From Clavibacter michiganensis (GTDB lineage: Bacteria > Actinomycetota > Actinomycetes > Actinomycetales > Microbacteriaceae), in assembly GCF_002151125.1 (NCBI RefSeq), contig NZ_MDJZ01000005.1, forward strand, positions 186,001 to 250,000: a stretch of DNA of 64,000 nucleotides, in the 5' to 3' direction. Positions 56,735 to 58,555 of the stretch are shown piece after piece; the first letter of the stretch is position 1; each line of letters starts with the position of its first letter. The notes beneath the pieces are model-generated. The model did no database searches. It was given only the letters and a program-made list of their open reading frames with translations, and had not been told where the DNA came from. A program made the translations under genes and the position numbers.

Positions 56735-57382
56735 TCAGACCGCGCCGGTGTCCGTGGACGCGGCCAGCAGCCCGGGCGACGGGGCCCAGTAGCCGACCTC
56801 GCGGAACCCGTCCGCGGTGGGCTCGAACGAGGTGATGCTCGACAGCGCGCAGCGGCGCTTCCGCGGGTCGTGGAACAGCGGCCTCCCCGTGACGCTGCGG
56901 TGCGCCATCCAGATCGGCAGCTGGTGGCCGACGAGGATCGCGTCCGTGCCGTCCGGCGCGTCCGCGGCCGCGGCCGCGAGCTCGGCCCGCATGCGCGCGG
57001 CGACCTGCGCGAACGGCTCGCCCCAGCTGGGCCGGAGCGGGTTCACCAGGTACCGCCATGCGGCCGGCTTCGCGAGGATCTTGAGGCTCACGTCGAAGCG
57101 GCCGCCCTCGAGGCGGCTGGACGCCTCGACGAGGCCCGGCCGCTGCTCGGGGTCGAGGCCGAGCGCGGCGGCCAGGGGCGCCGTCGACTCGAGCGCGCGC
57201 TGCAGCGGCGACGTGCGGAGGAGGCCGACCTCGCGGCCCTCCGCCACGACGTGCTCCGCGGCGGCCTCGGCCATGCGGCGACCGAGCGCCGTGAGGCCGA
57301 AGCCGGGGAGGCGGCCGTAGAGGATGCCGTCGGGGTTGTCGACCTCGCCGTGTCGCACGAGGTGGATCCTGGCTGCCGTCAC
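56735..57382 (-). CDS. Histidine phosphatase family protein
   Basis: 215 residues. The phospho-histidine motif is LVRHGEVDN (Arg10, His11, Gly12). Later Glu in ASSRLEGG and His in VGHQLPIW complete the acid phosphatase/phosphoglycerate-mutase-like site. Substrate unknown. It is divergent from the DPPR synthase gene and converges with the polymerase. A TAGGGT -10 lies about 35-40 bases before GTG 57382. Confidence 0.88.
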   Translation of the reverse strand: MTAARIHLVRHGEVDNPDGILYGRLPGFGLTALGRRMAEAAAEHVVAEGREVGLLRTSPLQRALESTAPLAAALGLDPEQRPGLVEASSRLEGGRFDVSLKILAKPAAWRYLVNPLRPSWGEPFAQVAARMRAELAAAAADAPDGTDAILVGHQLPIWMAHRSVTGRPLFHDPRKRRCALSSITSFEPTADGFREVGYWAPSPGLLAASTDTGAV

Positions 57383-57500: not shown

Positions 57501-57506
57501 TACGGT
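57501..57506 (+). promoter_or_regulatory. -10 candidate of the UbiA gene
   Basis: TACGGT, about 30 bases before the inferred start. It leaves a short leader that includes AGGAGG at 57525-57530. Confidence 0.4.
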
Positions 57507-57536
57507 GACTCTGATCGCCCGACCAGGAGGACCACC

Positions 57537-58460
57537 ATCAGCGAACCAGACCTCGTCCCCCGCACGCCCGGCGGCAGCAGCACGTCGGTCATCGGCGGAG
57601 TCATCCGCACCGCGCGCGTCCGCCAGTGGATGAAGAACGTGCTGGTGTTCGCCGCCCCGGTCGCCGCAGGAGCGCTCTTCGAGCCGTCGCTCGTGGGCGC
57701 GGTCCTCGCCTTCGTCGCCTTCTGCCTCGCCGCGTCCGGCATCTACTTCCTGAACGACATCCTCGACGTCGAGGCCGACCGCGCCCACCCGCGGAAGCGC
57801 TCGCGGCCCATCGCCGCCGGCGTCGTCCCGGTGCCGGTCGCCGTGGTGGTCGCCGTCGTGCTCCTGGTCGGCGGCCTCGCTGTCGCCTTCGCCGGCGGGC
57901 TCGAGCTCGCCGCCGTGGTCCTCTGCTACGAGCTCGTGCAGATCGCGTACTGCATCTGGCTCAAGCACATCACCATCCTCGACATCGCCGTCGTCTCGTC
58001 CGGCTTCCTGCTGCGGGCCATCGCCGGCGGCGCGGCCACGGGCGTCGTCCTCAGCCAGTGGTTCCTGCTGGTCGCCGTCTTCGGCTCGCTCCTCATGGTC
58101 TCGGGCAAGCGCTACGGCGAGCTCGCGAGCAACCCCGACCTCCAGGGCGACGTGCGCGGATCCCTCAAGGGCTACACGCTCGGGTACCTCGGCTTCATCT
58201 GGCACTCGGCCGCGACGATCCTGATCCTCGGCTACAGCCTCTGGGCCTTCGAGCTCTTCACCGACCTGCGGAACCTGTGGCTCTCCGTGTCGGTGGCGCC
58301 GTTCGTCCTCGCGGTGCTGCGCTACGGCCAGCACATCGACCGCGGCGACGCGCAGGCGCCCGAGGAGATCGCACTAGGCGACCGCATGCTGCAGGTGCTC
58401 GCGGGCGTGTGGCTCGTGATCCTCGTCATCGGCCTCTACGTGCAGCCCGGGGTGCTCTGA
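57537..58460 (+). CDS. Decaprenyl-phosphate phosphoribosyltransferase (UbiA family), apparent ATC start
   Basis: 307 residues and about 8 transmembrane helices. NDILDVEADRAHPRKRSRPI is the DPPR-synthase version of the UbiA metal site; a second motif (SGKRYGELASNPDLQGD) follows. The mycobacterial homologue Rv3806c transfers phosphoribose from PRPP to decaprenyl phosphate, the first step to decaprenyl-phosphoarabinose. AGGAGG at 57525-57530 is ideally spaced for ATC 57537; no ATG, GTG or TTG lies nearby in frame, and the next ATG falls inside the protein at QWMKN. The start is therefore unusual or marks a recent mutation. Confidence 0.85.
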   Translation: MSEPDLVPRTPGGSSTSVIGGVIRTARVRQWMKNVLVFAAPVAAGALFEPSLVGAVLAFVAFCLAASGIYFLNDILDVEADRAHPRKRSRPIAAGVVPVPVAVVVAVVLLVGGLAVAFAGGLELAAVVLCYELVQIAYCIWLKHITILDIAVVSSGFLLRAIAGGAATGVVLSQWFLLVAVFGSLLMVSGKRYGELASNPDLQGDVRGSLKGYTLGYLGFIWHSAATILILGYSLWAFELFTDLRNLWLSVSVAPFVLAVLRYGQHIDRGDAQAPEEIALGDRMLQVLAGVWLVILVIGLYVQPGVL

Positions 58461-58471
58461 GCGCCTGGCGG

Positions 58472-58507
58472 GTGAGCGCGTGAGCGCGTGAGCGCGTGAG
58501 CGCGTGA
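58472..58507. repeat. 8-bp tandem repeats after the UbiA stop
   Basis: GTGAGCGC repeated four times perfectly plus GTGA. Eight is not divisible by three, so TGA falls in all three plus-strand frames. Confidence 0.9.
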
Positions 58508-58555
58508 CGCTCTCCCGCCCGGATCCGGGGCGGCGACCGACGCCGGCGCGACCGG

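What the first reader, a model, noticed from the sequence alone, without database searches (positions are those of the whole stretch)
57520..57660. Probable ATC start codon on an envelope gene
A perfect AGGAGG sits 6 bases before ATC at 57537 and the coding frame begins there in a sensible way. No ATG, GTG or TTG is available in frame nearby: the upstream GTG at 57324 would overlap the divergent phosphatase start and has no ribosome site, and the next ATG is within the protein at about residue 32. Either AUC initiates, lowering expression, or a G-to-C change inactivated an ATG or altered a GTG.
Basis: partly seen in the sequence, partly recalled or inferred. Interest (0 to 1): 0.7.

Follow-up and report, generated by a model that had tools for sequence, protein, structure and literature searches.

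The report
Conserved AUC/AUU start on envelope gene
A bacterial cell-envelope gene appears to begin with the unusual start codon AUC instead of AUG, and its relatives in four bacterial genera keep AUC or AUU at the same place, which suggests a deliberately weak, probably regulated start rather than a mutation.

Summary
AGGAGG (57525-57530), a 6-nt spacer and ATC (57537) precede a 307-residue decaprenyl-phosphate phosphoribosyltransferase frame in a Clavibacter genome. One detail is wrong: the in-frame codon at 57324 is ATG, not GTG. SD+ATC alone proves little (9 matches in the window, 2.19 expected), but comparison does. The ATC is identical in the 5 Clavibacter genomes (of 18 searched) that carry the gene. 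The 10 orthologs found with the (I)SEPDLIP-type N-terminus, from 4 genera, all have ATC (8) or ATT (2) behind a Shine-Dalgarno sequence; 5 of 10 have no ATG/GTG/TTG in frame between the upstream stop and this codon. The 10 form one clade (99/98). So it is neither a sequencing error nor a recent G-to-C mutation. Control: infC (IF3) starts ATC AGC GAT CC in 12 of 12 genomes of the same family. Most likely this is a conserved near-cognate start that keeps synthesis low and exposes it to IF3; initiation, output and IF3 control were not tested. Known kind (infC, pcnB, sigR, ccpN), new gene. In passing: guaA appears to start ATT/ATC in 7 of 16 genomes.

The parts
57501..57506 (+). TACGGT, a -10-like TANNNT element 30 nt before the start codon (suggested promoter)
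   Evidence: Present in 5 of 5 Clavibacter; a TANNNT lies 28-54 nt before the start in 10 of 10 orthologs. Not tested against a background.
57525..57530 (+). Shine-Dalgarno sequence AGGAGG
   Evidence: SD element with 5-9 nt spacer in 10 of 10 orthologs
57537..57539 (+). ATC, proposed start codon
   Evidence: ATC in 8 and ATT in 2 of 10 orthologs
57537..58460 (+). Decaprenyl-phosphate phosphoribosyltransferase (UbiA superfamily), 307 residues
   Evidence: NF008978 388.5 bits, cut-off 207; PF01040; PDB 8j8j/8j8k by sequence
56735..57382 (-). Divergent histidine phosphatase gene, the constant neighbour
   Evidence: PF00300; a gene of the same type next to the orthologs in 8 of 9 relatives' stretches by ORF calling, in the ninth by DNA alignment of its beginning

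Best explanation
ATC at 57537 is the true initiation codon of a decaprenyl-phosphate phosphoribosyltransferase (DPPR synthase) gene. It is an evolutionarily kept near-cognate start (AUC or AUU), read by initiator tRNA with the help of a strong Shine-Dalgarno sequence. The codon keeps synthesis of this membrane enzyme low and, as for infC in the same genomes, should make it sensitive to the IF3/ribosome ratio. Shown here: the sequence, its conservation, the absence of upstream canonical alternatives in half of the orthologs, and the infC comparison. Inferred: initiation itself, low output and IF3 control. The reason for restraint (the enzyme spends PRPP and a scarce lipid carrier) is also inference.
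For: ATC in 5 of 5 Clavibacter with the gene; ATC or ATT in 10 of 10 orthologs of this type from 4 genera. Five of 10 have no canonical codon upstream in frame, and 7 of 10 have none downstream before codon 31. None of the 10 has a canonical codon with an SD-like 4-mer in the 40 codons before the R-x-x-Q-W motif, against 22 of 37 outgroup homologs. Codons 4-6 vary only at the third base and codon 1 only between C and T. The 36 nt before ATC are identical at 35 of 36 sites in 5 Clavibacter, against 18 of 44 farther up. One clade, 99/98. infC starts ATC AGC GAT CC in 12 of 12 genomes. Precedent: IF3 represses sigR with its GTC start, and infC is ATC in Streptomyces (PMC5472188, passages).
Against: No protein or ribosome data. 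SD+ATC is common by itself. Five of 10 orthologs do have canonical codons upstream in frame: G150 an ATG only 6 codons up, G319 a TTG 15 and an ATG 16 up, three Clavibacter 28 or more up; G147, G056 and G150 have a GTG or ATG at codons 14, 16 and 17. The ten sequences share one origin, so they are not ten independent events. No RNA structure signal.
Confidence: 0.82

Rival explanations
1. The protein starts further downstream at a canonical codon (ATG at codon 32 in Clavibacter), and the SEPDLIP stretch is untranslated.
For: ATG at codon 32 exists in 5 of 5 Clavibacter; G147, G056 and G150 have a GTG or ATG at codons 14, 16 and 17.
Against: In the 5 Clavibacter, G373 and G319 the first canonical codon (31-42) lies after the conserved R-x-x-Q-W motif, which is at residues 25-27 in the ten and is preceded by a canonical codon in 37 of 37 outgroup homologs. 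The alignment to PDB 8j8j begins at residue 16. Codons 1-8 show coding-type change. No SD-like 4-mer precedes the canonical codons found by the scan.
Confidence: 0.06
2. The protein starts upstream at a canonical codon and ATC is an internal isoleucine codon.
For: An in-frame ATG exists at 57324 and canonical codons exist upstream in 5 of 10 orthologs, only 6 codons up in G150.
Against: 5 of 10 orthologs have none before the stop. In Clavibacter the upstream frame is shifted between species by indels. The SD sits directly before ATC.
Confidence: 0.04
3. Sequencing error or a recent G-to-C mutation of an ATG or GTG.
For: None found.
Against: Same ATC in 5 Clavibacter assemblies and ATC or ATT in 5 further species of three other genera.
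Confidence: 0.01
4. The start is AUC/AUU, but only as a weak start kept by inertia or for low output, without any IF3-dependent regulation of physiological meaning.
For: No regulation was measured. In S. aureus the AUU start of cvfC1 showed no medium-dependent change (PMC13009471, passage).
Against: The codon switches between C and T at the third base yet is never G in 10 orthologs, which suggests selection against a strong start; IF3 discrimination is described as general for such codons (PMC5472188, passage).
Confidence: 0.35

Closest known systems
infC (IF3 gene) with AUU, AUC or AUA start and autoregulation
   Same: Near-cognate AUH start behind an SD; in these very genomes infC starts ATC AGC GAT CC, 10 of 11 letters as here. 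Streptomyces infC is ATC (PMC5472188, passage).
   Different: infC is a translation-factor gene with a feedback loop; this is an envelope-lipid enzyme with no such loop known.
sigR of Streptomyces (GTC start repressed by IF3)
   Same: Actinobacterial gene, conserved non-canonical start (GTC in 32 and GTT in 2 of 34 species), strong SD (PMC5472188, abstract and passages).
   Different: GTC rather than ATC; a sigma factor; experimentally shown, unlike here.
ccpN (AUA) and cvfC1 (AUU) of Staphylococcus aureus
   Same: Conserved non-canonical starts with strong SD; about 10% of AUG reporter output in poor medium (PMC13009471, passages).
   Different: Other phylum and other gene functions; found by ribosome profiling.
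pcnB of E. coli (AUU start)
   Same: A non-infC gene kept low by an AUU start (PMC1780047, passage).
   Different: Not an envelope gene (its function is recalled); other phylum.
Rv3806c-type decaprenyl-phosphate phosphoribosyltransferase (PDB 8j8j, 8j8k)
   Same: Same enzyme family by sequence, residues 16-295 aligned.
   Different: The start codon of that gene was not examined here. Organism name of the solved enzyme is recalled.

Membership tests
Genes with a conserved non-canonical (AUH) start codon | AUH with a well-placed SD at the start of the coding frame | tested here: met
   10 of 10 orthologs, SD spacer 5-9 nt
Genes with a conserved non-canonical (AUH) start codon | No canonical start that could serve instead | tested here: inconclusive
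   None upstream in 5 of 10; the other 5, G150 above all (ATG 6 codons up), have one; three have a GTG or ATG at codons 14-17
Genes with a conserved non-canonical (AUH) start codon | Kept across species | tested here: met
   4 genera, one clade 99/98
Genes with a conserved non-canonical (AUH) start codon | Initiation at that codon shown by peptide or footprint | not testable with these tools
   No proteomic or ribosome data at hand
IF3-regulated genes (infC, sigR kind) | Output falls with more IF3 and rises in IF3 fidelity mutants | not testable with these tools
   Inferred from the codon only
Decaprenyl-phosphate phosphoribosyltransferase (NF008978, UbiA superfamily) | Score above the curated cut-off of the family model | tested here: met
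   388.5 bits against 207; PF01040 89.5 against 34.2
Decaprenyl-phosphate phosphoribosyltransferase (NF008978, UbiA superfamily) | Enzymatic activity on PRPP and polyprenyl phosphate | not testable with these tools
   Sequence match to the solved enzymes 8j8j/8j8k only

The most novel reading that the evidence does not exclude
Microbacteriaceae use AUC/AUU starts as a small IF3-governed set beyond infC. IF3 (infC), the PRPP-spending DPPR synthase and, in several genera, GMP synthase (guaA, AUU overlapping the stop of the gene before it) share near-cognate starts, so that the IF3/ribosome ratio would tie envelope-lipid and GTP synthesis to translation capacity.
Probability: 0.22. Interest if true: 0.8.

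Novelty: new member of a known kind. Interest (0 to 1): 0.62.

Why it matters
Very few start codons other than AUG, GUG or UUG have been characterised in bacteria, and start prediction relies on these three (PMC5472188, passages). A case kept across four genera in an envelope-lipid gene, in genomes whose IF3 gene uses the same codon, is a ready test of how wide IF3-dependent control is, a question that the authors of the sigR study leave open (same passages). The N-termini of these proteins are probably misplaced in annotation; I did not check any annotation.

Tried and rejected
Sequencing error or recent mutation: rejected by the alignments. Upstream canonical start: rejected for the clade as a whole, though possible in single members. 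Downstream ATG at codon 32: disfavoured. SD+ATC as evidence by itself: rejected as too common. RNA structure hiding the start: four sequences folded, z-scores +0.5 to +1.1, so less structured than shuffles if anything. Link to a partner oxidase (PF04030, my stand-in for DprE1): 18 of 18 Clavibacter genomes have one match whether or not they have the gene, so uninformative. A second family search from another centre (397 genomes, stricter E-value) listed only genomes already found and is not independent evidence. Genus searches around G147, G056 and G150 (9, 1 and 2 genomes) gave no further ortholog of the SEPDL type. A further Clavibacter pattern hit (GGAGAGGTTCATCAGCGA) reads as antisense by its codon composition in the three copies inspected.

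Literature: three searches returned no paper ('non-canonical start codon' with AUC, AUU, infC; 'infC' with 'AUC start codon'; 'noncanonical start codons' with AUU, AUC). The capped listings for decaprenyl/phosphoribosyltransferase with start codon and AUC (10 of 22 shown), near-cognate start codon with IF3 (20 of 54), Clavibacter/Microbacteriaceae with start codon, AUC, AUU (12 of 381) and guaA/infC/IF3 with noncanonical start codon (10 of 12) showed no title or abstract start reporting this start. That is not proof that it is not in print.

Full report
What is there. The window lies in a Clavibacter genome: one search gives it as G000:C5:186001-250000, and the closest named relatives of the protein are Clavibacter sp. 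VKM Ac-2873 and C. lycopersici CFBP 8615, both 96% identical; the genus belongs to the Microbacteriaceae. At 57525-57530 stands AGGAGG, then six bases, then ATC at 57537, followed by AGC GAA CCA GAC CTC. The frame encodes 307 residues to the stop ending at 58460. The protein is a decaprenyl-phosphate phosphoribosyltransferase: NF008978 at 388.5 bits against a cut-off of 207, PF01040, and a phmmer match to PDB 8j8j and 8j8k.

Chance. AGGAGG followed by ATC at 4-9 nt occurs 9 times in the window, 2.19 expected in shuffles; with ATG or GTG, 18 times against 4.77. The motif alone does not make a start codon, and the case rests on comparison.

Conservation in the genus. Five of 18 Clavibacter genomes searched carry the gene at E <= 0.001, the window's own included. 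In all five the stretch AGGAGGACCACCATCAGCGAACCAGA is identical. The 36 nt before ATC are identical at 35 of 36 sites, against 18 of 44 at -100 to -57. Farther upstream, indels shift the frame, so the would-be N-terminal extension differs between species. L003 and L004 have no ATG, GTG or TTG in frame between the upstream stop and the ATC.

Conservation in the family. A search of 398 genomes of the family, drawn evenly from a larger group, gave 43 with any match at E <= 0.001. Eight of these matches align from residue 1 of the query; with two more Clavibacter they make ten orthologs in four genera (g1, g68, g40, g72). At the aligned place all ten have ATC (8) or ATT (2): five Clavibacter ATC, G147 ATC, G056 ATC, G319 ATC, G373 ATT, G150 ATT. 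All have an SD element with a spacer of 5-9 nt. In 5 of 10 (two Clavibacter, G147, G056, G373) there is no canonical codon upstream in frame. Against this, G150 has an ATG 6 codons upstream, G319 a TTG 15 and an ATG 16 codons upstream, and three Clavibacter, the window's own among them, have canonical codons 28 or more codons upstream. Downstream canonical codons come first at codon 31 or later in 7 of 10, and at 14, 16 and 17 in G147, G056 and G150. Over codons 1-8, codons 4, 5 and 6 (Pro, Asp, Leu) change only at the third base, as in coding sequence, and codon 1 changes only between C and T. A TANNNT motif lies 28-54 nt before the start in all ten; I did not test this against a background, so the promoter is a suggestion.

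Outgroup. The ten form one side of a branch with support 99/98 in a tree of 47 homologs built without the first 24 residues. By one rule, a canonical codon within 40 codons upstream of the R-x-x-Q-W motif, 37 of 37 outgroup homologs have one, 22 of them with an SD-like 4-mer before it; of the ten, 4 have one (G147, G056, G150, and G319 at the very limit), none with an SD-like 4-mer. The rule is generous: many outgroup codons it counts lie too close to the motif to be the true start. In a search of 396 genomes of the order (18 matches at E <= 1e-75, 16 of them from other families), several homologs from other families overlap the end of the gene before them with GTGA or ATGA; that upstream gene reads to me like a PAP2 phosphatase, a name that comes from no call. 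On this tree the near-cognate start needs only one origin. The ten also share a divergent histidine phosphatase gene: PF00300 in the window, a gene of the same type in 8 of 9 relatives' stretches by ORF calling, and in the ninth its beginning by DNA alignment.

Control gene. infC was looked up in 12 genomes (the ten above plus G040 and G330). In 12 of 12 it can be read from ATC AGC GAT CC behind an SD element with a 6-8 nt spacer, and in 5 of 12 no canonical codon is available upstream in frame. The gene studied here has 10 of the same first 11 letters. A pattern search for GGAG-N4-9-ATYAGCGA in the ten genomes gave 48 sites, 3-9 each, against 14 (0-4 each) for the reversed pattern. Of the 48, 30 were held as loci; of these, by my reading of frames and codon composition, 7 open infC, 6 open this gene and 1 opens guaA in G373, and the other 16 lie inside genes, antisense, or were not assigned.

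Mechanism. [quoted passage not shown] coli and ATC in Streptomyces and autoregulates, and shows that sigR, with a conserved GTC start, is repressed by IF3. PMC13009471 (passages) shows conserved AUU and AUA starts in S. aureus with about 10% of AUG output in poor medium, up to 30% for one gene in rich medium and no medium effect for another. By analogy the gene here should be made at low level and respond to IF3. Why low: the enzyme joins PRPP to a scarce lipid carrier, so excess could drain both; this is inference from general knowledge. I rate the ATC start at about 0.9, low output at about 0.8 and IF3-dependent regulation with physiological meaning at about 0.55. Folding of four initiation regions gave no structure signal.

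A third gene. guaA (GMP synthase) was found in 16 of 16 genomes. In 7 of 16 its frame appears to open at ATT (6) or ATC (1) behind GGAGG; the six Clavibacter have TTG there, two genomes of g72 ATG, and G319 an ATG farther up. In the six ATT cases the codon overlaps the TAG stop of the frame before it by one base, as in start-stop overlaps, so coupling to the upstream gene is likely. This widens the picture but was not studied further.

Verdict. It is a new member of a known kind. Initiation has not been shown directly.

Noticed in passing
L091, L092, L093, L100, L101, L102, L104 (guaA of G084, G285, G373, G040, G147, G330, G056): GMP synthase appears to start with ATT (6) or ATC (1) behind GGAGG in 7 of 16 genomes; in the six ATT cases it overlaps the TAG stop of the preceding frame (ATTAG). 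Six of the 7 have no canonical codon upstream in frame; G056 has a GTG 34 codons up, and G040 and G147 have GTGs downstream before the VDFG motif. Clavibacter uses TTG, g72 ATG.
   Followed up: partly
L040-L051 (infC of 12 genomes): infC can be read from ATC AGC GAT CC in 12 of 12 genomes, as known for Streptomyces (ATC; PMC5472188, passage).
   Followed up: yes
window 57537-58460: The gene is found in only 5 of 18 Clavibacter genomes at E <= 0.001, although the five copies are 95-100% identical; loss or transfer was not examined.
   Followed up: no
window 56735-57382 (-): A histidine phosphatase gene sits divergently beside this type of gene in the ten genomes, where some homologs of other families follow what looks like a PAP2 phosphatase; it may act on the product of the enzyme (inference).
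   Followed up: no
window 58473-58510: Short run of repeated gagcgcgt units just after the stop codon of the gene (seen).
   Followed up: no
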